A stretch of 11,479 nucleotides of DNA from assembly GCA_021804195.1 (NCBI GenBank), contig JAJZKJ010000027.1, forward strand, positions 1 through 11,479. Reading direction: 5' to 3'. The notes under the pieces are model-generated. The model saw only the letters and a list, made by a program, of their open reading frames with translations, was not told the origin of the DNA and did no database searches. The translations under genes and the position numbers were made by a program. Below are positions 1-11,479 of the stretch, piece after piece. Every line of letters starts with the position of its first letter. Position 1 is the stretch's first letter. This stretch comes from Acidobacteriota bacterium (lineage in GTDB: Bacteria; Planctomycetota; Phycisphaerae; WQYP01; JAJZKJ01).

Positions 1-55
1 TTTGGAGGAGGTCGCCAAGCATGGCTAGTCGAACATTCACCAACAGCCAAACCGG
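1..55. repeat. 55-bp inverted repeat, outer arm at the window edge
   Basis: This is a perfect reverse complement of 254-308, starting at the first base of the window. It carries a plus-strand copy of the start of the 57-aa gene, which would stop after 14 codons. The true repeat may extend beyond the edge. Confidence 0.95.
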
Positions 56-109
56 GCCGTGGTGACGCTGCCGATACCACTTGATTCTGCCATCCTCAAT
101 CGTTGCCAT
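1..109 (-). CDS. Possible start of a gene running off the left edge
   Basis: An ATG at 109, 5 bases after the stop of the 57-aa gene, opens a frame to the edge, beginning MATIEDGRIKWYRQRHHG. The first 18 residues come from unique sequence and look like a plausible charged N-terminus. The rest comes from the inverted repeat and is antisense to two other genes, so it is doubtful. No clear ribosome binding site is present. If the left end is an assembly fold-back, the true gene continues differently from codon 19. Confidence 0.35.
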   Translation of the reverse strand, partial: MATIEDGRIKWYRQRHHGPVWLLVNVRLAMLGDLLQ

Positions 110-114
110 CGTGA

Positions 115-288
115 CTAAAGGTGATGTGAAATCGCCAGAGCGAGAAGCACGCCGAGACCAACCATAAGGCCGCCTATTGCTCCGAAGATTGCGAAGTGCC
201 AATAGGAAAGGATTGTGGGGCTGGCGTTCACGTTTGGAGCCGCGGTGACGACTCCGGTTTGGCTGTTGGTGAATGTTCGACTAGCCAT
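115..288 (-). CDS. Small membrane protein (57 aa)
   Basis: The protein has a polar N-terminal part (MASRTFTNSQTG, then a short Ala/Asn/Pro region) and one hydrophobic helix at about 33-54 (FAIFGAIGGLMVGLGVLLAL). It ends SHHL. ATG at 288 is chosen because AGGAGG lies 9 bases upstream and it overlaps the previous gene by 8 bases; an upstream in-frame start would lie inside that gene. The first 12 codons and the ribosome binding site are in the 55-bp inverted repeat. Inversion of the enclosed segment would replace the rest of the protein with TGG TGA after GP, truncating it. A virion membrane role is inferred from context. Confidence 0.7.
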   Translation of the reverse strand: MASRTFTNSQTGVVTAAPNVNASPTILSYWHFAIFGAIGGLMVGLGVLLALAISHHL

Positions 289-308
289 GCTTGGCGACCT
301 CCTCCAAA
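254..308. repeat. 55-bp inverted repeat, inner arm
   Basis: This is a perfect reverse complement of bases 1-55. It covers the end of the 78-aa gene, the Shine-Dalgarno site and the first 12 codons of the 57-aa gene. The arms enclose 198 unique bases. Confidence 0.95.
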
Positions 309-517
309 GTGTTGACGAGATGGCGAACCGCGTCCTCGAGTGAGCGTGGGCGCTCCACACCGTCCAGCGCTTTGCGCGCCAGGGCTACGCCCTCTGCCAG
401 CAGTTCGGACACGGTGGACTCGGCCTCTTCGACAAAGCGCTCCGGCTCGTCCTCGACCGCCTCTGCTTTTGGCTCCTCGACCGTCTCTGCGGCTTCGTTC
501 TGGTCTGCTTCTGTCAT
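281..517 (-). CDS. Small acidic helical protein (78 aa)
   Basis: This 78-residue soluble protein of unknown function is strongly acidic over residues 3-45 (ETVEEPKAEAVEDEPERF, then VEEAESTVSELLAEG) and ends in a predicted amphipathic helix (SLEDAVRHLVNTLEEVAKHG). The start is ATG at 517 with AGGA 6 bases upstream. The open frame continues upstream through the neighbouring gene, but that extension is repeat sequence. Its first 28 codons are duplicated in the chimeric gene. Its end overlaps the next gene by 8 bases. The composition recalls the larger glutamate-rich protein at 10817, but I see no clear homology. Confidence 0.7.
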   Translation of the reverse strand: MTEADQNEAAETVEEPKAEAVEDEPERFVEEAESTVSELLAEGVALARKALDGVERPRSLEDAVRHLVNTLEEVAKHG

Positions 518-632
518 AGTGTTTCCTTTCCTAGTTTGAATAACCGAGTTGATGGGCGGCCCATTGGGCGGCCCATATTCCCATGATGGCACCGAAGGCG
601 ACGAGGGCGGCGAGGCCAACTGGCGCGGCCAG
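434..632. repeat. Tandem duplication, copy A (199 bp)
   Basis: This copy is identical to 633-819 apart from an extra 12 bp: TGGGCGGCCCAT occurs twice in a row at 553-564 and 565-576, against once in the other copy. Lack of any substitution means the duplication is recent, kept uniform by recombination, or an assembly product. Confidence 0.95.
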
Positions 633-716
633 AAAGCGCTCCGGCTCGTCCTCGACCGCCTCTGCTTTTGGCTCCTCGACCGTCTCTGCGGCTTCGTTCT
701 GGTCTGCTTCTGTCAT
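531..716 (-). CDS. Chimeric acidic/membrane protein made by the duplication (61 aa)
   Basis: Residues 1-28 (MTEADQNEAAETVEEPKAEA, then VEDEPERF) are identical to the N-terminus of the 78-aa acidic protein. Residues 29-61 are the C-terminal hydrophobic part of the 42-aa membrane protein, with an in-frame duplication of WAAQ/WAAH near the end. It is therefore a fusion created where the two repeat copies join (632/633). It keeps its own AGGAAAGGA ribosome binding site, ATG and TAG. Whether it is expressed or useful is unknown; it would put an acidic tail on a membrane helix. It may be a by-product of duplication or an assembly error. The frame is open upstream, but the ATG at 716 is the natural start. 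Confidence 0.55.
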   Translation of the reverse strand: MTEADQNEAAETVEEPKAEAVEDEPERFLAAPVGLAALVAFGAIMGIWAAQWAAHQLGYSN

Positions 717-819
717 AGTGTTTCCTTTCCTAGTTTGAATAACCGAGTTGATGGGCGGCCCATATTCCCATGATGGCACCGAAGGCGACGAGGGCGGCGA
801 GGCCAACTGGCGCGGCCAG
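633..819. repeat. Tandem duplication, copy B (187 bp)
   Basis: This segment is repeated directly next to itself at 434-632. The two copies are identical base for base except for a 12-bp insertion in the other copy. The unit spans the last 30 codons of the 42-aa membrane gene, the intergenic Shine-Dalgarno region and the first 28 codons of the acidic gene. Confidence 0.95.
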
Positions 820-858
820 TGCAATAAACGCATTCCAGACTATTGCTCCTAACTTCAT
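730..858 (-). CDS. Tiny hydrophobic membrane protein (42 aa)
   Basis: This is a single hydrophobic stretch at about 4-35 (GAIVWNAFIALAAPVGLAAL, then VAFGAIMGIWAA) with a polar end, HQLGYSN. The ATG at 858 overlaps the stop of the holin-like gene. The last 30 codons lie inside a tandem duplication: the same C-terminal sequence, with a 4-residue insertion, ends the chimeric gene downstream. This copy is the intact parent, because its N-terminus (MKLGAIVWNA) is unique. Function is unknown; a virion membrane or lysis accessory protein is possible. Confidence 0.7.
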   Translation of the reverse strand: MKLGAIVWNAFIALAAPVGLAALVAFGAIMGIWAAHQLGYSN

Positions 859-1055
859 GGCTTTGTAGCCTTGTTGGCATTGGATCCGCTGGTAGCTACC
901 GCGTGGGCGATGGCGAACGCGGAGCCTATGCCAGCAATGAGAGCATACTCCTCACCGCTCGAGAGCGTGACGCCCGCGCCGTGTGCGATCACAAACGCAG
1001 CCGATACGAGGGATACCCAAAAACTGGGCATCCTTAGAAACTCCGGAATCTTCAT
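855..1055 (-). CDS. Small two-pass membrane protein, holin-like
   Basis: This 66-residue protein has hydrophobic helices at about 10-28 (PSFWVSLVSAAFVIAHGAG) and about 36-56 (YALIAGIGSAFAIAHAVAT), a short loop holding LSSGEE, and a Lys-containing tail. Size and topology are those of many small phage holins, which would release a murein hydrolase or collapse the membrane at lysis. The same features suit a structural virion membrane protein, so the role is open. The frame is open further upstream, but ATG at 1055 is preferred because it overlaps the previous stop (ATGA) and has GGAG and AGG just upstream. The stop overlaps the next ATG. Confidence 0.75.
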   Translation of the reverse strand: MKIPEFLRMPSFWVSLVSAAFVIAHGAGVTLSSGEEYALIAGIGSAFAIAHAVATSGSNANKATKP

Positions 1056-1228
1056 AACCTCGCTCCTTTGATAATTGCCATGCTGCGCTTCCGCCATTCG
1101 CGGCGGAGCCGTTCGAAAATCCAGAATACCACGGCAGTAGCCAGGGCGCCCAGCACCCCGCCAATAATGGCAGCGTGGACGCGACTGACGCCCATCGTCG
1201 AGTTGAGAAGATCGAATGGAAAGATCAT
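1052..1228 (-). CDS. Small single-pass membrane protein with basic tail (58 aa)
   Basis: Residues 17-38 form one hydrophobic helix (VHAAIIGGVLGALATAVVFW). It is followed at once by a strongly basic amphipathic segment (FERLRREWRKR) that would stay inside the cytoplasm or face DNA. The start is ATG at 1228, with AGGAG about 11 bases upstream in the end of the spike gene. The ATG overlapping the spike stop gives only four codons, so it is not the start. The stop overlaps the next ATG (ATGA). A small holin-like protein or virion membrane protein is possible; no family was recognised. Confidence 0.7.
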   Translation of the reverse strand: MIFPFDLLNSTMGVSRVHAAIIGGVLGALATAVVFWIFERLRREWRKRSMAIIKGARL

Positions 1229-1235
1229 GGCGTGT

Positions 1236-2039
1236 TCATTCTCCTCTCACAGATGCTGTGCCTATCGTTGCCGTACCGGTAATCGTCAGAGACCAATACC
1301 AGCCTGCCGGGACAATGAGTGTTAAGTTGTCTGTGCCGATGGCGCCAGTAGCGGCACCACCCCACGCACCCGGTGCTGAGGTTGGTCCTAACGCAAACTG
1401 CCATGTTCCCGCGGCTGACCAGCTTACAGGCACCGTGATCACAATGTTGTATGCGTTGGTATTCTGATAGACAGTCCCCGATACCACGGCCTGAGTGGTT
1501 GGTGCTGCGGGTTGGGTTGCCAGTGATCCGGAAGTGTCTCCCAGTTTGGCGACAGACATCCATGTTTGGGGTTCGCCATTTAATGGCTGGGCCGCACCGC
1601 TGTACTGCTCAGTCTGTAGCGTTATCTTGTCTCCTGCGGCAAGTAATACCATTGCAGAGACTCCTTTACCGTTGTAACTTGAAGACATGGTAAAGTTTCC
1701 CGACAGTGAAATTTGGGTCCCATTATTAAGAATAGCTACGAACGCATTTGAAGAGGTACCTGGCGAAATGGCACCATTTTTGTATTGCAGATTTGCGATT
1801 ATCACGTAGTATCCTGCAGACGGCGCTGTGTACGTGTACGTGCTTACGTCAAAATTCCCCTGGGGATCAAAGTCAACCGTGTCCAACACGACAGTGGTTG
1901 CTGTAGCACTTGCTATCGACTGCGCAGTAGCCGCAGCCTGGTAAACCCGCGTGACGGTGCCAAACATCGGTGCGGGTGCACCTGGAGCGCCAGCAGCACC
2001 TGCTGGTCCTACAGGAGCAGGAGAAAGTATCGTACCCAA
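1236..2039 (-). CDS. Collagen-like / C1q-like trimeric spike candidate
   Basis: This 267-residue protein has three parts. Residues 11-22 hold four Gly-X-Y triplets (GPAGAAGAPGAP), a short collagen-like stalk. Residues 28-166 resemble a C1q/TNF-like jelly-roll: FDVSTYTYTAPSAGYYVI with the usual Pro-x-x-Gly-x-Tyr element, a central NAFVAILNNG strand, AAGDKITLQTEQYSG, and the closing MSVAKLG. Residues 180-267 are another beta domain, ending ITGTATIGTASVRGE. A collagen-like stalk with a TNF-like head is the architecture of PRD1 spike protein P5, so a trimeric vertex spike or receptor binder is likely. The start is TTG with GGAGGG 6 bases upstream. Part of the C1q coding region is clearly AT-richer than other genes here, as often seen in exchanged host-recognition modules. 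Confidence 0.8.
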   Translation of the reverse strand: MGTILSPAPVGPAGAAGAPGAPAPMFGTVTRVYQAAATAQSIASATATTVVLDTVDFDPQGNFDVSTYTYTAPSAGYYVIIANLQYKNGAISPGTSSNAFVAILNNGTQISLSGNFTMSSSYNGKGVSAMVLLAAGDKITLQTEQYSGAAQPLNGEPQTWMSVAKLGDTSGSLATQPAAPTTQAVVSGTVYQNTNAYNIVITVPVSWSAAGTWQFALGPTSAPGAWGGAATGAIGTDNLTLIVPAGWYWSLTITGTATIGTASVRGE

Positions 2040-2041
2040 TG

Positions 2042-3430
2042 TTATCCCTCCACCATTGCGGACACATATACCTGGCTAGCTGTTCCAGCAGTGACGATTA
2101 CGTCAATGGTGTCACCGCCGACGCAGGCAAAGGTGACAGGCGTGATTGTATAACTTCCTACCGCCTCACTGGTCAGGGGAAGCAGTGTAAAGGTTTGCGC
2201 TCCTGTGGCATCGGTGCTGGTAGCTGTGATGGTGACATCTGTAGCAGCAGTGACCACGCGGAAGTACACATATGCCGTGTACAGACCAGATCCAGACGGT
2301 GTAACAGACAACACTGTGGTTGCAGTGGTCGTTGCGATCTCTGTTTCATATGTGCTTCCCAGGGTGCCCTTCACGTTCAGGTTGCCGTTCGACACAGGCA
2401 GCACCGCACCGCCAGCAGTGATGTTGAGAGGGCCAGTCGCGTTGTTGATAGACGTAACCGCAAAGGCCTTGCCTACACCGTTCGTGGAGCTGCCGGACAT
2501 CGGAGACACGATTCCCGATACGATCACGTCTGCATTTCCGGAGCTGAGGTATCCATAAACACCCATCGGTCGTCCATTTCCCGAGGAATCATCCTCAATG
2601 GCAGGTTCCCACTGCCAGGTATTCTCAGGCACTGCAATTCCGGTGCCGGGCGCAAGCGACGATGCGCTGCCGACATACCAATGTGCGAGCTGCGTCAATC
2701 CGCCATTGTCGAGGTGCCAGAGTCCCAGGGTGTCCTGGTCGGCGTTAAACGGTTCCTGCGGCACTGGACAGGTAAGACCGACGTATCTCGCAATCGTGGA
2801 TAAACGGATCTCGTCCAGCGTTATCGTTGGATTGGATGTCGAACTCGTGTATTGTGAGTTGCTGGCAAGCATCATGCCAGCAGGAATTGTGTACGGCGGT
2901 TTTGTTGCCAGCAGTGTTCCGCCGTTGTACACCCTGGTGCTGAGCCCATCACAGGTTATCGCAAGCCATGTTGCAGGTAGCGGAGTTGGGAAACTCGCTG
3001 GCAGGTCAACTGTGCTGCCGTCCGGAAAAACCACCGCAAGCGTTTGGGCGGACCCGACAACAGAGCAGTACATTCCCAAATAAGGCGTCGTGCCAGCCGG
3101 TTGCGGCGTTGCCACTCCTGCAGGGTTTTGCCAGAAGCCCATGCTGGTGAGCACCGCCGGGGCGTAGTACGCAAATTCCAGTGTCCACTCTGACAGTTCT
3201 GGCAGATCAGGCAACGTGGATAGACCAAAGTCTTCGGAAGCGTCCGCGCCGTTCGCAACCACAGCAAGTCCAAATCCGGTTGTAGTAAAGAGCGCAGTTC
3301 CCAGCGCGTGTATGTGGTCAGCGGACGCCACGAGATAGGACTCGCCCGCGGCCGCGCTGGATCCCACAAACTCCACGCCTATCTGATTAGATTGGCGCGC
3401 GTGAATTGTGGGTGGATTGGTTATTGGCAT
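2042..3430 (-). CDS. LamG-like spike / receptor-binding protein candidate
   Basis: This 462-residue, almost wholly beta protein has no membrane segment. Residues 1-70 include a short collar-like start with ADHIHALGTALF. Residues 70-245 resemble a LamG/concanavalin A-like jelly-roll: LSEWTLEFAYYAP (79-91), TWLAITCDGLSTRVYNGGT (154-172), TITLDEIRLSTIARY (202-216) and the closing TLGLWHLDN (234-242). Such domains often bind carbohydrate. Residues 310-462 form a second beta region with SGLYTAYVYFRV and a GDTIDVIVTAG end. It ends in VEG, whose codons serve as Shine-Dalgarno site for the next gene. In context it is probably a vertex spike or receptor-binding protein. No catalytic site is seen. Confidence 0.78.
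   Translation of the reverse strand: MPITNPPTIHARQSNQIGVEFVGSSAAAGESYLVASADHIHALGTALFTTTGFGLAVVANGADASEDFGLSTLPDLPELSEWTLEFAYYAPAVLTSMGFWQNPAGVATPQPAGTTPYLGMYCSVVGSAQTLAVVFPDGSTVDLPASFPTPLPATWLAITCDGLSTRVYNGGTLLATKPPYTIPAGMMLASNSQYTSSTSNPTITLDEIRLSTIARYVGLTCPVPQEPFNADQDTLGLWHLDNGGLTQLAHWYVGSASSLAPGTGIAVPENTWQWEPAIEDDSSGNGRPMGVYGYLSSGNADVIVSGIVSPMSGSSTNGVGKAFAVTSINNATGPLNITAGGAVLPVSNGNLNVKGTLGSTYETEIATTTATTVLSVTPSGSGLYTAYVYFRVVTAATDVTITATSTDATGAQTFTLLPLTSEAVGSYTITPVTFACVGGDTIDVIVTAGTASQVYVSAMVEG
2046..2051 (-). promoter_or_regulatory. Shine-Dalgarno site that decides a TTG start
   Basis: GGAGGG lies 6 bases before TTG at 2039, with the stop of the LamG-like gene between them. There is no ATG or GTG at suitable distance, so it supports the unusual TTG start of the next gene. 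Confidence 0.65.
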
Positions 3431-3795
3431 TAGCTGTTTACCTGCTCCACGTCGGCGTCAAGTTCGGTAACGCGGAGTACCTGCGGCGCGGTCGCCGTCG
3501 GATCCGCGGTCGCCCACATGCGCCCGGTGAATCCCTCCAGCTCGGCGACAGCGCCAGGCAGGAGGACGGTTCCCTGTCCCCACGGCGACTTGGGGCCAGT
3601 AAGTTCGATATTGTATGTATTATTCGGATCTGCCTGGATCGAATAGAGGCCGCGCTGGTCGCGCGCGCTAAGGACCGGCGTGTTGCCGGTTCCGTCCACA
3701 TATGCTGGAACCTGAACCGCTGATGGCAACCAGTCGCCCCTGTACTTGTGCCGAACCTGTCGAGTGATCTGCACCGATGGCGCTGTCGTTCCCAT
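3430..3795 (-). CDS. Beta-rich 121-aa protein, penton candidate
   Basis: This soluble protein has many short beta-prone segments (PSVQITRQV, SAVQVPAYV, TYNIELTG, GTVLLPGAVAEL, QVLRVTELD) and no membrane segment or known motif. I do not recognise the family from sequence. Its length is close to the PRD1 penton protein P31 (126 residues, a single jelly-roll), and as in PRD1 it lies directly before spike-like genes, so a vertex/penton role is plausible but unproven. The ATG overlaps the lysozyme stop (TAATG) and has AGGAG 7 bases upstream. Its own stop overlaps the next ATG in the same way. Confidence 0.72.
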   Translation of the reverse strand: MGTTAPSVQITRQVRHKYRGDWLPSAVQVPAYVDGTGNTPVLSARDQRGLYSIQADPNNTYNIELTGPKSPWGQGTVLLPGAVAELEGFTGRMWATADPTATAPQVLRVTELDADVEQVNS

Positions 3796-4487
3796 TACGC
3801 TGCTCCTATTGCTTGCGCCGCGGCCAGCGAATGGCTCACAACCGGAATTCGACGAGCCATTGGCCTCGACATGATGATAATACCAATAACGATAAGTGCG
3901 AAGCCGAAGAGGGCGATACCTACACGGAAAAGACCTGCGGCTCCTATTCCGGTTAGGTTGAAGATGCCGCCGTTGGGATTGAGCGAGTTATTAAGCGCCA
4001 TCAGGATCTTGGTGGTGGCGCTCGCGGAGGCGCTCGAGGTCTTGGTAGAGGTCTTGGACGACATCGACGACGTTCCCTTGGTGCTGCCAGTGGGAAGGCC
4101 GACCTTGTACCCGGACTTCGCCAGGCTCGTCACGGCCGCGGTCGCTGTCGGTAGGTTGGCCTTGGCGGCGCCATTCTGCCACGTTGACCAGGGATTCCAG
4201 TTAGTGCCGCCATTGCTGATTTGATAGGCTGCTGCGGCATTCTGAGCGGGGTTATACGCCATCGCGTTTGTCACCGAGGGGTGCCAGTAGCTGTTTATCT
4301 GCCAGAGGCCGCGGTCCACGCTGCCGGGCGCGTCTTGGAGGTAAGCAGCGCTGTTGCCGCTGGACTCCGCCATAGCCACGGCGACGGCGTTGATCAATCC
4401 CTCTCCGCGAAAGCCAGCGTTGTACGCCAACTGCGCTAACTGCACCGGAGTGTAAAGTTTGTTTGGATAGGCGGAATTGATCGCCAT
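3795..4487 (-). CDS. Lysozyme-like (transglycosylase) protein with C-terminal membrane anchor
   Basis: This 230-residue enzyme probably cuts peptidoglycan glycan strands during entry or release. Residues 10-105 fit a lysozyme-like/SLT-type fold: AMAESSGNSAA (38-48) holds the likely catalytic glutamate E41, DRGLWQINS (58-66) matches the conserved GLWQI element, and NPAQNAAAAYQI (79-90) with NWNPWSTW (96-103) matches the later helix and aromatic part. A Thr/Ser-rich linker follows, then a membrane helix at about 186-206 (LFRVGIALFGFALIVIGIII) and a short basic tail. There is no signal peptide. The membrane anchor suggests a virion-membrane enzyme like PRD1 P7 rather than a free endolysin. Its stop overlaps the next start (TAATG). 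Confidence 0.85.
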   Translation of the reverse strand: MAINSAYPNKLYTPVQLAQLAYNAGFRGEGLINAVAVAMAESSGNSAAYLQDAPGSVDRGLWQINSYWHPSVTNAMAYNPAQNAAAAYQISNGGTNWNPWSTWQNGAAKANLPTATAAVTSLAKSGYKVGLPTGSTKGTSSMSSKTSTKTSSASASATTKILMALNNSLNPNGGIFNLTGIGAAGLFRVGIALFGFALIVIGIIIMSRPMARRIPVVSHSLAAAQAIGAA

Positions 4488-4488
4488 A

Positions 4489-5118
4489 CTATCCGTTCTT
4501 TTTGATGAACTCGGGAGACTTTGAAAAGTTGGCGAATACAGGCGCTATGTTTCCGTGGTCAGCCGCTATCAGGCTGCCCCAATGGCTCAGGCCGGTTGCG
4601 CCTGCCTTCCGATGCAGGTAACTGTGATACCAGCTCTGGATGATGGCCTCGGGACTGTTTTTGATGCCATTGAGCGCAACGCCCAATCCCTGAGATTGAG
4701 CAACGCTGTTCCAGTGTGCGAGGGAGGATGCCGACAAACTCCGGTAAAGGCTGCTCTGCGCCTGCGCCTGCAACTGCGCGGCATAGGTCGGAGTATAGGT
4801 CGTGCCAGTCGGCGTCTTTACCGTTGTGGTCGGGGGATTGACCGGGACTGTCTTACTGATTGGGCTGGTGGGAGCCGGGCCGCTGCTGGTCACGCGCCGC
4901 GAGCGCCGGTTAACCGTCACGTAAACCGTGGGCGCCTTGCTGCTGCCGGTTGAGGTCGGAACCATGATTTGCTGTGGCATTGCGCCGGACGAGGAGGATG
5001 AAGAGGACGATTTGCCCTTGCTAAGAAACATGTACACGACCAGGAACGCGAGCGTTCCACCCCCAATAATGAGAATCACGGTTCGGTGGTCGTGCCACAT
5101 CTCCTCAAAGTTCGTCAT
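4489..5118 (-). CDS. Membrane-anchored protein with DUF4214-like repeats
   Basis: This 209-residue protein has a single N-terminal membrane segment at about 13-33 (TVILIIGGGTLAFLVVYMFL), an eight-serine run at 37-44, and a Ser/Thr/Pro-rich linker to about 115. The C-terminal part (about 118-209) holds two similar helical units. Each has an aromatic start, a Leu-x-His-Trp core and a turn (SLAHWNS at 135-141; GLSHWGS at 176-182), and the second ends in SPEF. This resembles the DUF4214 family of repeats, common in bacterial surface and secreted proteins. An anchor, flexible stalk and end domain suggest a protein reaching from the viral membrane outward, or a host-envelope-interacting part. It ends just before the lysozyme-like gene, also membrane-anchored, so a shared entry role is plausible. 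Confidence 0.75.
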   Translation of the reverse strand: MTNFEEMWHDHRTVILIIGGGTLAFLVVYMFLSKGKSSSSSSSSGAMPQQIMVPTSTGSSKAPTVYVTVNRRSRRVTSSGPAPTSPISKTVPVNPPTTTVKTPTGTTYTPTYAAQLQAQAQSSLYRSLSASSLAHWNSVAQSQGLGVALNGIKNSPEAIIQSWYHSYLHRKAGATGLSHWGSLIAADHGNIAPVFANFSKSPEFIKKNG

Positions 5119-5411
5119 TTCCAGACCTGCACGCCTGCGCTAGGCAGACTAACTTGTGCTGGATTGGAGCCAGCGGAGGGAGTGACCTGCGTCTGCCGCG
5201 CTGCGGTGGGCGATGACTGCCGCACGATGACGGTGCGCAGCGATGGTTCGGCGTAGAAGTACAGAAGGCGCTTTGGGTTAAGGATGGGTGCGCTTTGGCG
5301 TACGATCTCGTCCCTGTTGCGTGACGTGGATCCATAATTCGCAGGGTGCCGACGCACGACGACGGGAACATCTCCCTTGATGCTTTGCGCGATTTGCGCG
5401 CGGAGGTTCAT
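5115..5411 (-). CDS. Hypothetical basic 98-aa protein of the virion block
   Basis: I do not recognise this 98-residue protein. It is soluble and rich in Arg and Ser. A probably folded N-terminal half has a VPVVVRR strand and the motif RLLYFYAEPSLRTVIVRQ (48-65). The C-terminal part from about 66 is Ser/Pro/Gln/Thr-rich and probably extended. There is no membrane segment. It lies between small membrane proteins and the anchored DUF4214-like protein, and its stop overlaps the next ATG (ATGA). A capsid-to-membrane or vertex linker would fit the context, but the sequence does not show this. Confidence 0.7.
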   Translation of the reverse strand: MNLRAQIAQSIKGDVPVVVRRHPANYGSTSRNRDEIVRQSAPILNPKRLLYFYAEPSLRTVIVRQSSPTAARQTQVTPSAGSNPAQVSLPSAGVQVWK

Positions 5412-5413: not shown

Positions 5414-5590
5414 TCAGGCTGCCGTTCCAGCCTTGCCGACGAACAGTGTCTTTACGATGTTACCTATCCCGGTAAAGAACGCCCCCAGGATGCCTGTGGA
5501 TGCGTTTCCGTGCTGCAACATTTGAAAGATGATGCTCGCCAGGATGACTCCGGTGATGCCGGATGCGATAAGACCGATGATGCCTGTCAT
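5414..5590 (-). CDS. Small hydrophobic protein (58 aa)
   Basis: Residues 1-24 form a hydrophobic segment (MTGIIGLIASGITGVILASI and on). A second Gly- and Phe-rich hydrophobic or amphipathic segment covers about 32-50 (GILGAFFTGIGNIVKTLF), and the end is short and basic. The start has GGAGGG followed by 4 bases, and this site spans the stop of the gene before it. It ends 2 bases before the next ATG. Gly-rich paired helices suit a membrane-packing or membrane-shaping role in the virion, which is inference. Confidence 0.75.
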   Translation of the reverse strand: MTGIIGLIASGITGVILASIIFQMLQHGNASTGILGAFFTGIGNIVKTLFVGKAGTAA

Positions 5591-5591: not shown

Positions 5592-5861
5592 TTACCCTCC
5601 GATGAGACTATATAGCTGATAAATCAGGGCCGCGACTCCGAGCATGATTACAGGCGTCCGCACAGGTGGGAACGCTGCCGCTGCTCCTGCCAGGGCGAGG
5701 ACAGATCCGACAATGACAATCCACGATGGGATGCCAAAGATAGTCGACCCCTTGGCGCTCGAGGCGGTTTTGGCAGCGCCTGTGATGCCGCTCGAGGGCG
5801 TCTTGGATGCGGTCGAGCCTGTGCCGCTAGCGGTGCTGGTATGTCCGTATGCGATTTTCAC
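5592..5861 (-). CDS. Small membrane protein with two hydrophobic segments (89 aa)
   Basis: Residues 2-42 are Ser/Thr/Gly/Ala-rich and probably unstructured. Two hydrophobic helices follow: about 45-66 (GIPSWIVIVGSVLALAGAAA) and about 69-86 (VRTPVIMLGVAALIYQLY), with a turn holding PPVR between them. The GTG start at 5861 overlaps the previous stop and has AAGG 7 bases upstream; the sequence then reads KIAYGH. The stop is inside the Shine-Dalgarno site of the next gene (GGAGGGTAA). It is probably an internal-membrane protein of the particle. No family is recognised. Confidence 0.75.
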   Translation of the reverse strand: MKIAYGHTSTASGTGSTASKTPSSGITGAAKTASSAKGSTIFGIPSWIVIVGSVLALAGAAAAFPPVRTPVIMLGVAALIYQLYSLIGG

Positions 5862-5974
5862 GGCAGCACCTTGGTTCCAGCCATCGCGCCTCCGAAATTA
5901 GCCAGGATATTGCTGTGGCTGCGGATCAGCGCAATCACCAGCACCAGGCCGAAGAGAAGGAGGATTGGTGTCAT
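5858..5974 (-). CDS. Tiny single-pass membrane protein (38 aa)
   Basis: The protein starts MTPILLLFGLVLVIALIRSH, a single membrane-spanning helix of about 17 residues, followed by a short tail ending in TKVLP. The start overlaps the preceding stop (ATGA), has GGAG 7 bases upstream, and the stop overlaps the GTG of the next gene (GTGA). That double coupling makes a real gene likely despite its size. It is probably a virion membrane component; no family is recognised. Confidence 0.68.
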   Translation of the reverse strand: MTPILLLFGLVLVIALIRSHSNILANFGGAMAGTKVLP

Positions 5975-6261
5975 CCGATGACTCCGTAGCTTTTGCCGTT
6001 GATGATCGTCACGCCGCTCTTTGGCTGTTTCTGCTCGAGAATGCCGTTTACCATCTTGCCCTGCAATGTCTGTCCGGACTTGCCTCCAACCGAACCGGGT
6101 CCAACGTAGGGGGTGGCGATTGCCTTTGGAATGCCGTCGGCGGTGCCAGAACTCGTCAGGGCCGAGGAGTCCACCAGGGCAGCTAGCATTGCTGCCAGCC
6201 GCCCGGTGATGCCTCCGAACGCCACGAGAGCGCCTGTGACCGCGACTATGGCGCCAAACAT
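5971..6261 (-). CDS. Small membrane protein (96 aa) after the capsid gene
   Basis: The N-terminus is a hydrophobic segment (MFGAIVAVTGALVAFGGITG, residues 1-20, with a hydrophobic continuation to about 31). It is followed by a Gly/Ser/Thr-rich soluble part with a beta-like end (GVTIINGKSYGVIG). It is probably anchored at the N-terminus with the tail on one face of the virion membrane. The start is one base after the capsid stop (TGAGATG), and the end overlaps the next small gene in an ATGA arrangement. The ribosome binding site is weak (AGGAAG, 12 bases upstream), so translation is probably coupled to the capsid gene. I do not recognise a family. Confidence 0.75.
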   Translation of the reverse strand: MFGAIVAVTGALVAFGGITGRLAAMLAALVDSSALTSSGTADGIPKAIATPYVGPGSVGGKSGQTLQGKMVNGILEQKQPKSGVTIINGKSYGVIG

Positions 6262-6262: not shown

Positions 6263-7585
6263 TCAGTAGGTCGCTTCCTGCAGCGTGAAGGAGCAGGTCG
6301 AGATTCCTGTGAATGCAGTCGTCGCGGTGCCGCTAGGGAGGCGAGTGACGATTTGCATGTTGGGGGTGGGCATAAGATCCCAAATCGCCGCCAACGGCAC
6401 CGAATCGGTCATGAGGGCGTCGTAGGGTGTAAGCATTGGATCGTTGGGATCCTCGCCTCCCACATTGTCCACCACGTCCACGCCGAAGGGCAGATAGCGT
6501 CCGTATCGCGCCTGATAGTCGCGGAACTTATCCGCAAAGTTGTTGATGCTCGCATCATACTCCGAGCGCGCTGTTTTCTGAGACTCGTCGTCCCACACGG
6601 AGAAGTAGTTGTTCCGCACCAGGCTGTTGGCCGCCAGGGTGAGGACGTTGACCTTGAGGTAGATACCGTTCTCCTGCATCCACACTGGGGTGAGGGAGTT
6701 GGCACTGCCAATGGTCGTGTCCTTCTGGTTTACGAACAGCGCATATCCGACCGTGGGCGGGGTCGCCGTCTGCCCAGGCTCGAGCGTGTCGATCGCCTTC
6801 GATCGGATGACGTTGATGACCTGCACGGACCCTACGGTCTGCGCTGTCACGCCAAAGGTTGCTCCGCCAGCCCCGCCAGTATCCTGCAGCGGAGACTGGT
6901 CCTCGCGCGCGCCAACAATCGGAGCCAACTGCACGGATACAGCGGGCCGGTTGCCAGGATCTCCGAGCGGGATCATCCCTATGCAGTTGTCCCGGAAGCG
7001 CTGGAGCTGGATCTTCACCCGGTAGGTCACCGTGTAGTTTGTCGTGGTGGAAGCGGTGGTGGTGTTGTTCACCGCGACGCCTGGTGTCAGGCCGCCGAGG
7101 TCGAATTGCGAACCTCCGTCATCCTGATACTGCGAGACTCCGCCAGAGTTGGAGGCGTCTCCAATTCCCCTGTAGGAGGGGTCGCGGTTCACGCGGTTGG
7201 TGATCTCATCCAGATAAAATTCGTGGGCAGAGATGAAGTCGAAGTACGTCGCGCCTCCGAATTTTAGTTTCACCAGCACGCTATTGAATGGGAACAGCCT
7301 CGAGGGAGTGAAACCGCCACCCGCTGGCACCGTGACCGCGATCTCTTCCTGAATGAAGAGGTCGAATTCAGACGCCCACCGTGAAACTTTGGGTATGTCT
7401 GACTGCCAAACTGTGTTGGCGAGACTGCCGCCCGCGGTTGGTCCGGTGATGGTGCCGACGAGAACGATCTCTGGTGTGTCCCGCGCCAGAGTGAGCCAGG
7501 GAAGGCACTCGGCGGAAAGGGCTGCTGGTGTGCCGGGCGCGGCGCTGGTGGATGCGTTTGGCTGTGCCACTGTTTTGCTGCTCAT
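6263..7585 (-). CDS. Major capsid protein, probable double jelly-roll
   Basis: This 440-residue beta-rich protein without membrane segments probably forms the trimeric capsomers of an icosahedral tailless virion. Its length is near that of DJR capsid proteins (PRD1 P3 is about 395). The first barrel would span roughly 60-225, ending in a segment that runs YRVKIQLQR (188-196), then IGMIPLGD (202-209), then NRPAVSVQL (212-220). An IPL element followed by a beta strand is typical of this lineage in my reading. A second beta-rich half follows from about 245 (SVQVINVI, IYLKVNVLTLA) to the end. The N-terminal 30 residues are Ala/Ser/Pro-rich and probably flexible. It sits between small membrane-protein genes, two genes after the packaging ATPase. 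No homology search was possible; a different beta-rich capsid fold is the main alternative. Confidence 0.75.
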   Translation of the reverse strand: MSSKTVAQPNASTSAAPGTPAALSAECLPWLTLARDTPEIVLVGTITGPTAGGSLANTVWQSDIPKVSRWASEFDLFIQEEIAVTVPAGGGFTPSRLFPFNSVLVKLKFGGATYFDFISAHEFYLDEITNRVNRDPSYRGIGDASNSGGVSQYQDDGGSQFDLGGLTPGVAVNNTTTASTTTNYTVTYRVKIQLQRFRDNCIGMIPLGDPGNRPAVSVQLAPIVGAREDQSPLQDTGGAGGATFGVTAQTVGSVQVINVIRSKAIDTLEPGQTATPPTVGYALFVNQKDTTIGSANSLTPVWMQENGIYLKVNVLTLAANSLVRNNYFSVWDDESQKTARSEYDASINNFADKFRDYQARYGRYLPFGVDVVDNVGGEDPNDPMLTPYDALMTDSVPLAAIWDLMPTPNMQIVTRLPSGTATTAFTGISTCSFTLQEATY

Positions 7586-7586
7586 C

Positions 7587-7745
7587 TTAGCCGAGGCTCA
7601 CTACTGCGGCGCCCACGGAGGCTACCGGTGAAATGAATGGCAACTTTAGCGATGAGACGAAGCCAAACAATAGCTTCAGTGAAATGATGAACGCCAGGGC
7701 GTATGCGCCGATGACGACAAAGTGTTCTGCCATGTTCCGAAGCAT
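7587..7745 (-). CDS. Small membrane protein (52 aa) upstream of the capsid gene
   Basis: This 52-residue protein begins MLRNMAEHFVV and has one long hydrophobic stretch at about 9-29 (FVVIGAYALAFIISLKLLFG) and a second, weaker one in the C-terminal half (ISPVASVGAAVVSLG). I do not recognise a family. The call rests on a full AGGAGG at good spacing, exact filling of the gap between ATPase and capsid genes, and a stop one base before the capsid ATG (TAAGATG). In membrane-containing icosahedral viruses, short hydrophobic proteins encoded beside the capsid gene are usually components of the internal membrane; that role is inferred. Confidence 0.75.
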   Translation of the reverse strand: MLRNMAEHFVVIGAYALAFIISLKLLFGFVSSLKLPFISPVASVGAAVVSLG

Positions 7746-7754
7746 TAAGCGTTG

Positions 7755-7760: not shown

Positions 7761-7802
7761 GCGAGATTCAAATACCTGCGCGGGCGACGCGATGGATAAG
7801 AG

Positions 7803-7831
7803 TATATACCCTGCAGGTCACCGAATGACAA
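7803..7831 (-). promoter_or_regulatory. Candidate sigma70-type promoter for the capsid block
   Basis: On the minus strand TTGTCA (7831-7826) and TATATA (7808-7803) are separated by 17 bases; TATACT at 7806-7801 is an alternative -10 with a 19-base spacer. The -35 box lies in the last codons of the ATPase gene. The -10 falls in the 72-base gap before the 52-aa membrane protein and capsid genes, one of only two gaps of more than 50 bases here. It would give separate, stronger expression of structural genes. Confidence 0.45.
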
Positions 7832-8483
7832 GGGGGAACTTCGAGAAGTCTGGATAGTAGGTCCAGGCCGCTCCTCCGACGAGGTCTCCCCACCAGAAGC
7901 CGTGGGCGTCCGGCAGGTCGCCCTTGTACTGGCGACACATCTCCTGCAGCATCTTTTCATCGTTCACGAACGGGCACCTCATGAGCAGAGCGTGCTGCGC
8001 TTGTGATATAAGCTGCCGCGGAATGTTTACTGGCTCTTGGGTGCATCCGATGATGCCAATGTTGCGCCCGCGGCCTTGCCCGAATGCCTGATCGAGCGCC
8101 TCGCCAGGCGTCCGGGCGGTCGGGCAGACTTGCTTGAACTCGTCGATAAGGATCTCGACGTTGCACCTGTCATAGCACCACTGGATTACTCGCTGCGCAA
8201 CCTCCCACTTGGTGAGGCCCTTCTGCGCCAGGCATCGCACCACGAGTAGCCGGTTGTCAGAATCGCTGCGGAGGCGGTTTGGCTTTACTTCGACGTACCC
8301 AGCCTTCCGCCACATCGCGAGGTCGTTGGGATCTTCCTTGGTGCTCAGGATCAGCCCAATCTCCGGGTAGGGACAACTCGCCACCAGCGTGTGGTGGATT
8401 GCGGTCGCTACGGTCGTCTTGCCCGTACCGCGCTGCCCTATGATGGACACCACCTCGTCAGAGGCGATGGTGATTTGTTTCAC
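7818..8483 (-). CDS. Genome-packaging ATPase (FtsK/HerA, A32-like)
   Basis: This 221-residue P-loop NTPase probably powers DNA entry into the preformed capsid. Walker A is GQRGTGKTT (16-24) and Walker B is ILIDEF (111-116) with D114 and E115. NIGIIGCTQEP (141-151) matches the conserved polar segment with a Gln seen in FtsK/HerA-type ATPases. Length, motif spacing and lack of extra domains fit packaging ATPases of tailless membrane viruses (PRD1 P9 is about 227 residues). The frame stays open far upstream inside the methyltransferase gene, but the GTG at 8483 is chosen: it overlaps the methyltransferase stop (GTGA), has GAAGAG upstream, and puts Walker A at the usual position near the N-terminus. 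It lies upstream of the capsid gene, as in many DJR viruses. An unrelated HerA-like ATPase is the alternative, less likely here. Confidence 0.87.
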   Translation of the reverse strand: MKQITIASDEVVSIIGQRGTGKTTVATAIHHTLVASCPYPEIGLILSTKEDPNDLAMWRKAGYVEVKPNRLRSDSDNRLLVVRCLAQKGLTKWEVAQRVIQWCYDRCNVEILIDEFKQVCPTARTPGEALDQAFGQGRGRNIGIIGCTQEPVNIPRQLISQAQHALLMRCPFVNDEKMLQEMCRQYKGDLPDAHGFWWGDLVGGAAWTYYPDFSKFPLVIR

Positions 8484-9745
8484 TGCGCCAACTCTTCGAG
8501 CCGCAGCCGCGTGGTTTCGACGCAACCCGGGTCGAGGTCGCCGCCCAGGAAGTTGCGCCCGGTAGTGAGGGCAGCGACGCCCGTAGTACCAGATCCGACA
8601 AAGGGATCGAATACTGTCTCGCCGGGTTCGGACACCATATCGACCCAATGCGCCATGCCGTCGACTGACTGCTGCCAAGGGTGGAGCGGACGGAATTCGG
8701 CAGCCGTGTTTCCCTCCTGTGTCGAAGCAATGTACATATCGTGGATCCACTTGCGCGGCTCATACTTGCCTGCACTATAAAGGAGAATAGAGCGATGCCT
8801 GCCATTTATCTGCCGGACGTGAACCTTTGTATGCTTCCCAGGGAGGACGTTGACACCATGCCAGGCATAGGTGAGTCCACCCTCCTTGAGGAGATCCATC
8901 TCCTCTGGCAACGATAGGTGCCCACAATAAACTGCCGCCAGCCTGCCCGGCTTAAGAACGCGCGCAGCCAGGCGCGCCAGATCCGCAAACAACGGCACCC
9001 CTGCGAGATCATAGGGAGGGTCGGTCACGACGGCGTCAATCGATCCATCAGGGATGTCCTTCCAGACCTCGCGCAGGTCGCTGTGGCGAATCTCATAATT
9101 CCGCCCACCCTGCCGCTCAGGCACATCCACGCTGCGGCGCCGCATCATGAAGGCATCCCGCGCTCGGCTCTCTGCCACGTTGAGCGCCAGGAGCCTGCCG
9201 GGTGCCTCTTCGCCCAAGGTCTCGAGCGCCGCTCTGGCGCGCGCCTCATCACGCGGTGACCCGACTATGATCGAGGGCGCCACCCGCGGGCGCTGCGGAC
9301 GGTAGCTCTTCCCATCCTTCCCCACGATAGGCACAGGAGTGGAAATACCAACTTGTGAAACGTCGCCGCGTACCGTGGTGTGGTCCACCCCAAGTGCCTG
9401 CCCTATGCGCCGCAGGGACCAGCCGCGCGCCCGCAGGGAGGCCACCACCTCGACCCGCTGTTCCCTGGTGAGATGACGGCGGAAAAGGTTGCTCGACACC
9501 ACGAATCCTACCCGGTCCTCGTCGTCTTCGAACCTTCGCACGTCCACCAGCGGTTTCACGGCGATGCCCTCCTCGCGCAACTCGGCAACTGCCTTCAGCC
9601 GATGGTGCCCATCAATAGTGGCGCCGGTAGAGCCATCTTTAACAATGGGCACGCGCACCCCATGCGCAGCGATGTCTGCCTTGAGATTGGCATATTCCGC
9701 GTCTGACAATGCTGGCAGCAGTTGCCAGGGGTCGGCATCGGTCAC
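8480..9745 (-). CDS. ParB-like domain fused to a class-beta DNA methyltransferase
   Basis: This 421-residue fusion probably binds or recognises DNA through its N-terminal half and methylates an exocyclic amino group (N6-adenine or N4-cytosine) with S-adenosylmethionine through its C-terminal half. Residues 8-105 resemble the ParB/Spo0J N-terminal domain, with IDGHHRLKA at 44-52. A helix-turn-helix-like segment lies at 109-129 (SLRRIGQALGVDHTTVRGD). In the methyltransferase the catalytic motif IV is DPPYD (242-246) and the cofactor motif FDPFVGSGTTG (379-389) comes after it, the permuted order of class-beta enzymes. Base specificity cannot be read from this. The GTG start at 9745 overlaps the previous stop, and the stop overlaps the GTG of the ATPase, so the three genes are translationally coupled. 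No partner restriction enzyme is visible. It may protect viral DNA or mark or segregate the genome. Confidence 0.9.
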   Translation of the reverse strand: MTDADPWQLLPALSDAEYANLKADIAAHGVRVPIVKDGSTGATIDGHHRLKAVAELREEGIAVKPLVDVRRFEDDEDRVGFVVSSNLFRRHLTREQRVEVVASLRARGWSLRRIGQALGVDHTTVRGDVSQVGISTPVPIVGKDGKSYRPQRPRVAPSIIVGSPRDEARARAALETLGEEAPGRLLALNVAESRARDAFMMRRRSVDVPERQGGRNYEIRHSDLREVWKDIPDGSIDAVVTDPPYDLAGVPLFADLARLAARVLKPGRLAAVYCGHLSLPEEMDLLKEGGLTYAWHGVNVLPGKHTKVHVRQINGRHRSILLYSAGKYEPRKWIHDMYIASTQEGNTAAEFRPLHPWQQSVDGMAHWVDMVSEPGETVFDPFVGSGTTGVAALTTGRNFLGGDLDPGCVETTRLRLEELAQ

Positions 9746-10380
9746 TGCGCTGTCGGAGTTGCAGCGGCCGCCTTGGCCTGCGCCGCTGCCATTTGCGCGG
9801 CAAAACTACGGCGCAGCACTATCAAGGAGACCACATGCGTTGCAATGGCAACAATCGCAGATCCGACAAGGATCCATACCAGCAGCCCGTCCAGTTTCTG
9901 AAGCGCTTTGTACCCCGAGGGAGTCTCCTCGAGCCGCGCTACTGCCTCCGCCACCTGCGCGACGGCATCGCTTGGTAGTGCCAGGGATTGTCCGGTCGGC
10001 GTGAGCGGCGCCAGGGGGTCGCCTCCTTCCCACACGACAAATGCTGGCATCCCGGTGATGAGTACGCCCGCCTTAACCACCAGCGGGTTGAAGTCGCGCC
10101 GCAGCGTTTCCTGGTGCGCTGCCAGGCGTTCTGCGCGCGAGTCGCGCTTTGGAACGGCAGAGATCAGCCGCCTGCGCCGGTTGGCGTCGCGGATCCGAAT
10201 CGCCTTGGCCTCTGCTTCCTCCGGATTCGCCTCGACCTTCTCCTTTCGTTTCGCGGTGCGCTTTACCGGACCGTCGAGGATTCCATCGGACTTCGGCTCC
10301 TTAACCTTCTTGACGTCTGCCGGATCGCCAGGCACCAGCGGCTCGAGCTTTGGCAGTTCCTCAGCAATCACTTCCACCAC
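9742..10380 (-). CDS. Hypothetical protein with C-terminal membrane segment (212 aa)
   Basis: I do not recognise this 212-residue protein. Residues 1-110 are highly charged and rich in Lys, Arg and Glu (KRTAKRKEKVE, ANRRRRLIS). A mixed region with AFVVWEGGDPLAP follows. One clear hydrophobic segment lies at about 166-188 (LVWILVGSAIVAIATHVVSL), then an Ala/Gln-rich tail. It is probably anchored in a membrane with most of the protein on one side. The start is one of two adjacent GTG codons at 10380-10375, about 11 bases after GAAGAAGAG and inside the end of the acidic gene. The end overlaps the methyltransferase start in a GTGA arrangement. It could be a virion membrane protein or a replication/membrane anchor. 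Confidence 0.7.
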   Translation of the reverse strand: MVEVIAEELPKLEPLVPGDPADVKKVKEPKSDGILDGPVKRTAKRKEKVEANPEEAEAKAIRIRDANRRRRLISAVPKRDSRAERLAAHQETLRRDFNPLVVKAGVLITGMPAFVVWEGGDPLAPLTPTGQSLALPSDAVAQVAEAVARLEETPSGYKALQKLDGLLVWILVGSAIVAIATHVVSLIVLRRSFAAQMAAAQAKAAAATPTAQ

Positions 10381-10817
10381 TTCCGATAACTCTTCTTCTC
10401 AGGCTCAGCGACGCGCGAAATCACCTCGACCGGCTCGGTTTCCGCTGGCGCCTCGACCTCCTCCTCGACCGTCTCTTCGACTGCCTCCTCGACCGCGGCG
10501 GCGACGACTTCAGGAACGATCTCCTCCACGGCTTCTTCCTGAGCCTCCTCCGCCACGGCCTCAGCGATTGCGGCGGACTCCACCACGGCTTCCGCCACGG
10601 TTGCCGCCGCTAATGTTTCGCGTTCTTTTCTCTCGCGTTCGTGTTGCGCCTCATGTTCGATGCGCCAGGCTTCGTGCTCTGCCAGGTGCACATCACGCTC
10701 GGCGGCGTGCAGCATGTGATGCTCGGATGATACCGGCGTCTCATGCTCGCGCTCCGGCTCCTCCTCCGGTTCTGGATCGCGCTCCAGTTCTGGAACCTTA
10801 ACCGTGATCTCGGTCAT
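10368..10817 (-). CDS. Glutamate-rich, coiled-coil-like acidic protein
   Basis: This 149-residue protein of unknown function has very biased composition: 43 residues are Glu by my count. Residues 30-70 are a His/Glu/Arg-rich predicted helix (EHHMLH, HLAEHEAW, QHERERKERE). Residues 70-135 are a low-complexity Glu/Ala/Val stretch of near-repeating EEAVEE and EEVEA units, probably an extended helix. The last ten residues switch to basic and aromatic (EKKSYRKWWK). The N-terminus also carries a Pro/Glu run. Such proteins often act as scaffolds, DNA mimics or flexible linkers; this is inference. The ATG overlaps the upstream stop, and the gene end overlaps the start of the 212-aa membrane protein by 13 bases, so the two may work as a pair. 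Confidence 0.7.
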   Translation of the reverse strand: MTEITVKVPELERDPEPEEEPEREHETPVSSEHHMLHAAERDVHLAEHEAWRIEHEAQHERERKERETLAAATVAEAVVESAAIAEAVAEEAQEEAVEEIVPEVVAAAVEEAVEETVEEEVEAPAETEPVEVISRVAEPEKKSYRKWWK

Positions 10818-11059
10818 GCCTTCACCCCCGGCGCTGGATTTGGCACGAATTTCCCGATGGGAAACTCAACCAAGATGCCCTCCACCATGAAGGCCGCCGC
10901 ATCTTCGTTGGTGGCACCGGGAATCGCCTCGGCAAGATTGGTAATCTGTCGGCGGATCTCCGCCCGGATCAGTTCGCCAGGATCAACGCCCGCGGGGATC
11001 AAATCCTGCTGCTGCTGCACTGCGGCCTCTGCCGCCGCCTTTATTGATGCCTCGTCCAT
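10814..11059 (-). CDS. Hypothetical 81-aa protein
   Basis: I do not recognise this small soluble protein. Residues 1-50 are predicted helical and rich in Ala, Glu and Gln (MDEASIKAAAEAAVQQQQ). The C-terminal part (EGILVEFPIGKFVPNPAPG) looks like a short hydrophobic strand followed by a proline-rich tail. It has no membrane segment. The start is well supported by AGGAGG 5 bases upstream. The stop overlaps the ATG of the glutamate-rich gene (ATGA), so the two are probably made together. It could be an assembly or replication accessory protein, but nothing in the sequence decides this. Confidence 0.7.
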   Translation of the reverse strand: MDEASIKAAAEAAVQQQQDLIPAGVDPGELIRAEIRRQITNLAEAIPGATNEDAAAFMVEGILVEFPIGKFVPNPAPGVKA

Positions 11060-11064
11060 GATTG

Positions 11065-11070
11065 CCTCCT
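11065..11070 (-). promoter_or_regulatory. Strong Shine-Dalgarno site for the 81-aa gene
   Basis: AGGAGG lies 5 bases before the ATG at 11059. It fixes this start and shows that translation restarts independently after the stem-loop. Confidence 0.7.
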
Positions 11071-11078
11071 GTTGCTTG

Positions 11079-11103
11079 GTGCGGGTGGTCGCCCCACCCG
11101 CAC
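11079..11103. other. Perfect 10-bp intercistronic stem-loop
   Basis: GTGCGGGTGG and CCACCCGCAC form a perfect 10-bp inverted repeat around a 5-base loop. It lies between the stop of the 102-aa gene and the Shine-Dalgarno site of the 81-aa gene, with the minus-strand 3' side of the stem 8 bases from that AGGAGG. There is no T-run after the stem on the minus strand, so it does not fit a standard intrinsic terminator. A transcript-stabilising or processing stem, or a partial attenuator, is more likely. Confidence 0.6.
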
Positions 11104-11110
11104 GATTATT

Positions 11111-11419
11111 CTAATCTACCGACCAACGGTTTCTGCTGCCGCTGCGCTTGCGGACGATGTGAGATGTTCGGCGTCTGCCCTTTTCCAGGGCCGCGCGCTT
11201 GCGCTCCGAGTAGAGCTTTGGATCCCACTCCTCCATGACGATGTCCGAATATAACTGCGCACCACGCCACACACGCTCCTCGTCGCCTTCGCGAATTAGG
11301 AAAACGTGCGGCCCATCGGTGTACACGTCGTCAATCACATCACCCTCGTGCAAAACGCCTTCATATAGCCATTGTATTCTCATGCCCCGGAGCACGTTGT
11401 GGCATTGCCGCCATTTCAT
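11111..11419 (-). CDS. Hypothetical basic 102-aa protein
   Basis: I do not recognise this 102-residue protein. Its N-terminal 60 residues look like a small beta-rich fold (VLHEGDVIDDVY, then PHVFLIREGDEERVW). The last 30 residues are strongly basic (KGRRRTSHIVRKRSGSRNR), which would suit nucleic-acid binding; that is inference. It has no signal peptide or membrane segment. The ATG at 11419 overlaps the stop of the preceding partial frame, and an in-frame stop lies 13 codons upstream, so the start is either this ATG or the internal one at residue 13. Neither has a clear ribosome binding site. The gene is followed by 51 non-coding bases holding a strong stem-loop. It belongs to the early half of the cluster, upstream of the methyltransferase and ATPase. 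Confidence 0.6.
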   Translation of the reverse strand: MKWRQCHNVLRGMRIQWLYEGVLHEGDVIDDVYTDGPHVFLIREGDEERVWRGAQLYSDIVMEEWDPKLYSERKRAALEKGRRRTSHIVRKRSGSRNRWSVD

Positions 11420-11479
11420 GTGCGCAGGCCGGGCGTCTTGCGAATGTTGTCACCAACCACCCAACGCGAGGCTGGAAAC
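11416..11479 (-). CDS. C-terminal end of a gene cut by the window edge
   Basis: This frame is open from the right edge of the window and encodes about 20 residues, ending in NIRKTPGLRT and a TGA stop. That stop overlaps the ATG of the next gene in an ATGA arrangement, the same coupling used by several genes in this window, and this is the only reason to call it. Function cannot be told from so short a tail. It could be chance, because an open frame of this length is not rare. Confidence 0.4.
   Translation of the reverse strand, partial: FPASRWVVGDNIRKTPGLRT

What the first reader, a model, noticed from the sequence alone, without database searches (positions are those of the whole stretch)
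1..11479. Candidate uncharted DJR-type membrane virus gene cluster
The combination seen here is a small packaging ATPase, a 440-aa beta-rich capsid candidate, a membrane-anchored lysozyme-like protein, collagen/C1q-like and LamG-like spikes and at least ten tiny membrane proteins. This matches the logic of PRD1-like viruses, but the ParB-methyltransferase, DUF4214-like protein and LamG spike are not part of the classical tectivirus set as I know it. It may represent a divergent lineage.
Basis: partly seen in the sequence, partly recalled or inferred. Interest (0 to 1): 0.82.

Follow-up and report, generated by a model that had tools for sequence, protein, structure and literature searches.

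The report
Divergent PRD1-like tailless phage genome fragment
This DNA is most of the virion-building gene block of an apparently undescribed tailless, probably membrane-containing bacterial virus distantly related to phage PRD1; distant relatives of its capsid gene occur in actinobacterial genome assemblies, and a DNA-methylating enzyme gene sits among its DNA-packaging genes.

The parts
11111..11419 (-). ORF of 102 aa, no family; most upstream complete ORF of the window
10814..11059 (-). ORF of 81 aa, no confident family
   Evidence: Shine-Dalgarno-like AGGAGG upstream
10368..10817 (-). acidic 149-aa protein (30% D+E) in the position of PRD1 P6 and the acidic proteins of Toil, P19 and phiG2
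   Evidence: composition and position; L009, L014 and L017 have acidic proteins beside the ATPase block; homology to the L009 one only barely above shuffles (19.7 against at most 17.4, probability 3%)
9742..10380 (-). 212-aa protein with C-terminal hydrophobic segment, position of PRD1 P10
   Evidence: homology to the P10-position proteins of L009/L016/L017 not shown (13 of 40 and 2 of 25 shuffles as high)
8480..9745 (-). ParB-like domain + N6/N4 DNA methyltransferase, 421 aa; GTGA 4-nt overlaps with the genes on both sides
   Evidence: overlaps read from the coordinates and codons
7818..8483 (-). P9/FtsK-HerA-type genome packaging ATPase, 221 aa
   Evidence: phrog_2666 2.3e-19 (scanned with the longer ORF 7818-8750), same top PHROG for 5 of 5 DJR-phage ATPases; hhalign to four tectivirus ATPases 98.4%, E 8.3e-15
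7587..7745 (-). 52-aa membrane protein between ATPase and MCP (position of PRD1 P20)
   Evidence: hhalign score 21.0 to the same-position proteins of L009+L016, shuffles at most 13.4; an earlier test with a shorter L009 piece alone was not above shuffles
6263..7585 (-). [quoted passage not shown]
5971..6261 (-). 96-aa membrane protein, homologue in L009
   Evidence: BLASTP 3.6e-5, hhalign 8.3e-7
5858..5974 (-). 38-aa membrane protein
5592..5861 (-). 89-aa membrane protein, two hydrophobic segments, GTG start
5414..5590 (-). 58-aa membrane protein
5115..5411 (-). 98-aa protein, no hydrophobic segment
4489..5118 (-). 209-aa N-terminally membrane-anchored protein with DUF4214
3795..4487 (-). entry lysozyme candidate, SLT_3 domain plus C-terminal TM, 230 aa
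   Evidence: Pfam 1.7e-31; best phage match is the 'putative entry lysozyme' of Rhodococcus phage Toil, 46% over 91 residues, 1e-10
3430..3795 (-). 121-aa protein, penton-base candidate by size and position only
   Evidence: inference; no PDB match of note, hhalign to L009/L015 same-position proteins at noise level
2042..3430 (-). 462-aa putative receptor-binding spike, LamG-like by eye only
   Evidence: no confident family
1236..2039 (-). 267-aa spike candidate with short collagen-like run and C1q domain (TTG start)
   Evidence: C1q 3e-5; phrog_15750 (unknown function) 5.7e-10 and phrog_13989 'virion structural protein' 4.7e-8
1052..1228 (-). 58-aa membrane protein
855..1055 (-). 66-aa membrane protein
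730..858 (-). 42-aa membrane protein, overlapping the tandem duplication region
434..819 (.). tandem duplication 434-632 / 633-819, identical except for one 12-nt unit; makes a chimeric ORF 531-716
1..308 (.). fold-back: arms 1-55 and 254-308 are perfect reverse complements, 198 nt apart; probably an assembly or library artefact

Best explanation
The window is the late (virion) operon of a tailless icosahedral dsDNA bacteriophage of the PRD1 fold lineage, from a deeply branching group with actinobacterial relatives. Shown by computation: a P3-like double jelly-roll capsid protein, a P9-type packaging ATPase, small membrane proteins and a membrane-anchored lysozyme in tectivirus order. Inferred: capsid trimers coat an internal membrane carrying the small TM proteins; the ATPase pumps DNA through a special vertex; the C1q-type spike and the 462-aa protein bind the host; the membrane-bound lysozyme opens the peptidoglycan during entry; the ParB-methyltransferase, whose gene overlaps its neighbours, methylates the phage genome late in infection, most likely against host restriction.
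Against: Only one of five AF2 models was good (72.1 against 47.9 or less); the single-sequence model failed. The capsid profile matches PRD1+GC1 (82.7%, 9.5e-6) and weakly phiG2 (34.4%, 4e-4) but not Toil+P19+WheeHeim or PM2 alone. The ATPase matches PRD1+GC1 only weakly (11.1%, score 26.7 against shuffles of at most 20.4) and PM2 alone hardly (5.0%). No relative of the window's ATPase except itself among 143 candidates of the 5.8-billion search. Replication genes, genome ends, membrane and virion were not seen. BLASTP found no methyltransferase in L009, L015, L016 or L017. The acidic, 212-aa and 121-aa proteins and the lysozyme do not, or only barely, exceed shuffles against their positional counterparts in these relatives.
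Confidence: 0.92

Rival explanations
1. A narrower reading of the same thing: an ordinary new genus inside the family Tectiviridae, with PolB, terminal protein and inverted repeats just outside the window.
For: Same order of the core genes as Toil, P19 and WheeHeim and the lysozyme domain matches theirs; tectiviruses keep the replication block upstream of the virion operon, which here lies beyond 11479; a contig with an identical capsid reaches 16,775 bases.
Against: Capsids of the group are split from six tectivirus capsids by a long 100/100 branch (unrooted); no BLASTP match at E<=0.1 of the window's capsid or ATPase to PRD1, GC1, Toil or P19 ORFs; the 492-aa orphan gene of the relative L015 does not match tectivirus PolB.
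Confidence: 0.35
2. It is a defective or satellite element or a provirus remnant rather than a replicating phage.
For: No replication gene, integrase or terminal repeat recognised in the window; duplication and fold-back at the low end.
Against: The virion genes are open and tightly packed; an identical capsid is on three contigs, the longest 16,775 bases; relatives with parts of the same block occur in four genomes. The low-end oddities look like assembly artefacts.
Confidence: 0.05
3. It is a tailed phage or a bacterial surface-protein cluster.
For: C1q, DUF4214 and methyltransferase genes also occur in other phages and bacteria (partly recalled).
Against: DJR capsid fold and P9-type ATPase; among 20 of the 23 called proteins scanned against PHROGs no tail or portal family (for the methyltransferase only the best 25 of 44 rows were shown); the 'terminase large subunit' PHROG hit is the P9 family.
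Confidence: 0.01

Closest known systems
Tectiviridae: PRD1 (Alphatectivirus) and GC1 (Gammatectivirus)
   Same: P3-fold capsid; order ATPase, two tiny proteins, capsid, tiny proteins, transglycosylase; in PRD1 an acidic protein and a 203-aa protein before the ATPase.
   Different: 12% identity in the structural alignment to PRD1 P3; methyltransferase between the P10-position gene and the ATPase; SLT_3 instead of SLT lysozyme domain; PolB/TP not seen.
Actinobacterial tectiviruses Toil, P19, WheeHeim
   Same: SLT_3 lysozyme (Pfam for Toil; tblastn matches in all three); same core order; actinobacterial hosts.
   Different: The capsid profile of this group does not match theirs directly; no methyltransferase is annotated in those records.
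Lysinibacillus phage phiG2 (Tectiviridae)
   Same: Closest ATPase among the named phages compared (hhalign 98.2%; BLASTP 5.9e-10); same order.
   Different: Capsid only weakly related (hhalign 34.4%).
Odin group of Yutin et al. 2018 (PMC5894146, Results section read)
   Same: DJR capsid; ParB-family proteins are reported there.
   Different: Odin genomes lack a packaging ATPase according to that paper; this window has one. Not compared by sequence.
Corticoviridae PM2 and PM2-like phages
   Different: No capsid profile match and hardly any ATPase match to PM2 alone.

Membership tests
DJR-capsid tailless phages (Tectiliviricetes-like) | capsid protein with two jelly-rolls | tested here: met
DJR-capsid tailless phages (Tectiliviricetes-like) | P9/A32-like packaging ATPase near the capsid gene | tested here: met
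   one 52-aa gene lies between them
DJR-capsid tailless phages (Tectiliviricetes-like) | no tail genes | tested here: inconclusive
   no tail or portal family above noise among 20 of 23 called proteins of the window; the genome is not complete
Tectiviridae | protein-primed family B polymerase and terminal protein | tested here: inconclusive
   not recognised in the window, which lacks the upstream part; the L015 492-aa ORF does not match tectivirus PolB
Tectiviridae | linear genome with inverted terminal repeats | tested here: inconclusive
   window ends are not shown to be genome ends; only an internal fold-back 1-55/254-308
Tectiviridae | capsid groups with known tectivirus capsids | tested here: inconclusive
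   unrooted split of 12 against 6 with 100/100 support; no outgroup, long branches
Tectiviridae | internal lipid membrane | not testable with these tools
   nine tiny TM proteins fit but do not show it
Odin group | DJR capsid without packaging ATPase | tested here: not met
   ATPase present
FLiP / Finnlakeviridae | M13-like rolling-circle Rep and FLiP-type capsid | tested here: inconclusive
ParB-methyltransferase fusion proteins | ParB-like N-terminus and N6/N4 methylase C-terminus | tested here: met
   of 225 phage records matched, two (Methanoculleus viruses L4768 and Blf4, same record length and position) cover at least 80%, 24.6% identity

The most novel reading that the evidence does not exclude
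A family- or order-rank lineage of PRD1-fold phages of uncultured Actinobacteria in which, in this member, a ParB-type DNA methyltransferase has become part of the packaging module, its gene overlapping both the gene before it and the packaging ATPase, so that the genome is marked or protected as it is packaged, with a replication system other than the tectivirus protein-primed polymerase.
Probability: 0.15. Interest if true: 0.75.

Novelty: new variant of a known kind. Interest (0 to 1): 0.55.

Why it matters
A 2024 preprint (PMC11071308, passages read) argues that eukaryotic viruses of the polinton kind evolved from tectivirids, possibly from a group not yet discovered. A new deep capsid lineage whose relatives can be traced to one actinobacterial family gives a handle to find complete genomes or inducible phages, to read their replication system, and to ask whether genome methylation can be tied to packaging.

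Tried and rejected
Single-sequence AlphaFold2 of the capsid failed (pLDDT 29.5) and was not used. A first translation of the ATPase was out of frame and replaced. Searches that gave no relatives: megablast of the window and tblastn of its capsid in 50,697 phage records, tblastn of P0007 and P0002 there and of P0002 in plasmids; IMG/VR scans with the capsid, alignments A1, A2, A3, A10 and P0007 and with the ATPase; genome scan with A1. An IMG/VR scan with the GC1 capsid found only GC1 itself. No tRNA, no Rfam family at gathering score. PolB for the 492-aa ORF of L015: I suspected it by eye; hhalign against Toil/P19/WheeHeim and PRD1/GC1 polymerases was matched or beaten by all 25 shuffles each time, and PDB gave nothing of note, so it is dropped. 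Homology of the 212-aa, 121-aa and acidic proteins and of the lysozyme to counterparts in L009/L015/L016/L017 was tried and is not, or only barely, above shuffles. One search did not list P0006 and P0007 although one search did; both searches scored only the 7995 candidates sharing most words. In some searches at most 4 first-look candidates a genome were scored in the rows shown, so those counts are lower bounds. Bam35 and Wip1 records were not held under the accessions I tried; STIV, Autolykiviridae and the contigs of Yutin et al. were not compared by sequence. The inverted repeat 1-55/254-308 as a terminal repeat was rejected because both arms lie at one end, 198 nt apart.

Papers: PMC5894146 abstract, the whole Results section and passages; PMC9502842, PMC11071308 and PMC11768872 passages (and search listing) only; all others search listing only. 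I saw no paper describing this group in the listings of those four searches; the library lacks most subscription journals, and PRD1 biology beyond these is recalled.
Full report
What is in the window. The plausible genes lie on the minus strand and tile it nearly without gaps. From upstream to downstream: 102 aa, 81 aa, an acidic 149-aa protein, a 212-aa protein with a C-terminal hydrophobic segment, a 421-aa ParB-methyltransferase, a 221-aa ATPase, a 52-aa membrane protein, the 440-aa capsid candidate, five small proteins (96, 38, 89, 58, 98 aa; the first four with a hydrophobic segment), a membrane-anchored DUF4214 protein, a lysozyme with C-terminal TM, 121 aa, 462 aa, a C1q protein, and several tiny proteins, most of them with a hydrophobic segment. 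The methyltransferase gene overlaps the gene before it and the ATPase after it by GTGA (coordinates and codons), which suggests a settled part of the operon.

ATPase. The PHROG it hits (phrog_2666, 2.3e-19, called 'terminase large subunit') is the top PHROG for the packaging ATPases of PRD1, GC1, Toil, phiG2 and PM2, 5 of 5 tested. hhalign to four tectivirus ATPases gives 98.4%, E 8.3e-15, score 96.1; shuffles reach at most 25.2. By branch: phiG2 98.2%, Toil+P19+WheeHeim 95.0%, PRD1+GC1 11.1%, PM2 5.0%. The Walker A glycines and lysine, the DE of Walker B and an R..Q.P pattern after it are invariant in six sequences.

Order. In PRD1, GC1, Toil, P19, WheeHeim and phiG2 the ATPase is followed by one or two proteins of 40-49 aa and then the capsid; the seven of these that I tested have a hydrophobic segment. 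Small proteins and a lysozyme or transglycosylase follow. In PRD1, Toil, P19 and phiG2 an acidic protein of 143-166 aa (19-26% D+E) and a protein of 165-203 aa stand directly before the ATPase; GC1 and WheeHeim fit less well (GC1 has a 75-aa gene between, WheeHeim's first protein is only 7% acidic). The window shows an acidic 149-aa (30%) and a 212-aa protein there, with the methyltransferase between the latter and the ATPase. The lysozyme's best phage match is the 'putative entry lysozyme' of Toil (46%, 1e-10); 6 of 12 matched records are Toil, P19, WheeHeim and RickRoss (the last known to me as a tectivirus by recall), and 11 of 12 have actinobacterial hosts. Toil's enzyme carries the same Pfam domain.

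Relatives and host. A contig of the MAG Actinomycetes bacterium LSA5.bin104 (L009) carries a capsid (33% by BLASTP), an ATPase (27% by BLASTP; hhalign 1.4e-16), a homologue of the 96-aa membrane protein and an SLT_3 lysozyme (7.1e-7). Searching genomes with the capsid alignment: 4 of 397 in the order of that genome, 3 of 32 in its family, and 1 of 396 drawn from the phylum, that one being the same genome. In G273 and G032 an acidic protein, ATPase, a TM protein and the start of a capsid stand in one block; in G032 the acidic and P10-position proteins run along with the ATPase as in the window, but without a methyltransferase; in L009 and G273 they point the other way. This supports an actinobacterial host for that sub-branch; for the window itself it is an inference, since capsid identity is only about a third.

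Placement. In a maximum-likelihood tree (18 capsids) the 12 members of this group and six tectivirus capsids are on opposite sides of a 100/100 branch. The tree is unrooted, has no other DJR groups, several long end branches that the program warns about, and the window's place inside its group is unresolved. So I call it a deep lineage beside the tectiviruses sampled, not a proven family.

Mechanism. Shown by computation: capsid fold, ATPase type, gene order, membrane anchoring by hydropathy, lysozyme and methylase domains. Inferred from PRD1 biology (recalled): trimers of the capsid protein on a membrane vesicle, vertex-based packaging, spike-based adsorption, lysozyme-assisted entry. The methyltransferase is most likely for protection against restriction; the overlap with the packaging genes suggests late expression.

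Limits. The window lacks the upstream genes: a contig with an identical capsid reaches 16,775 bases. No polymerase, terminal protein, integrase or terminal repeat was recognised. In the relative L015 (17,067 bases, beginning inside the capsid gene) a 492-aa orphan has no family and does not match tectivirus polymerases. The first 820 bases hold a perfect fold-back and a nearly exact tandem duplication that fuses two genes; gene calls there should be treated with care.

Noticed in passing
window 1-308: Perfect 55-nt inverted repeat (1-55 / 254-308) with a 198-nt spacer, both arms holding the start of the same 57-aa membrane protein gene: probable fold-back chimera at a contig end.
   Followed up: partly
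window 434-819: Tandem duplication of 199/187 nt, identical but for one 12-nt unit, creating a chimeric acidic/membrane ORF at 531-716.
   Followed up: yes
window 1236-3430: The two spike genes have third-position GC of 0.48 and 0.59 against 0.63-0.77 for most other genes, which may mean recent acquisition.
   Followed up: no
L009 9406-9816: 136-aa protein with an Acb2/Tad1 hairpin Pfam match just at the cut-off (4.7e-6): possible anti-defence sponge in the actinobacterial relative.
   Followed up: no
L015 10287-11201: Protein hitting phrog_8332 (5.8e-35, unknown function) over a stretch with 12-nt repeats.
   Followed up: no
L015 15156-16838: Two low-complexity stretches of GCC-rich imperfect repeats with spacings such as 12 and 37 nt.
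   Followed up: no
L009, L014/L016 vs L017 and window: The acidic protein and its P10-position partner point away from the ATPase-capsid block in L009 and L014/L016 but along it in L017 and the window: a small inversion within the lineage.
   Followed up: partly
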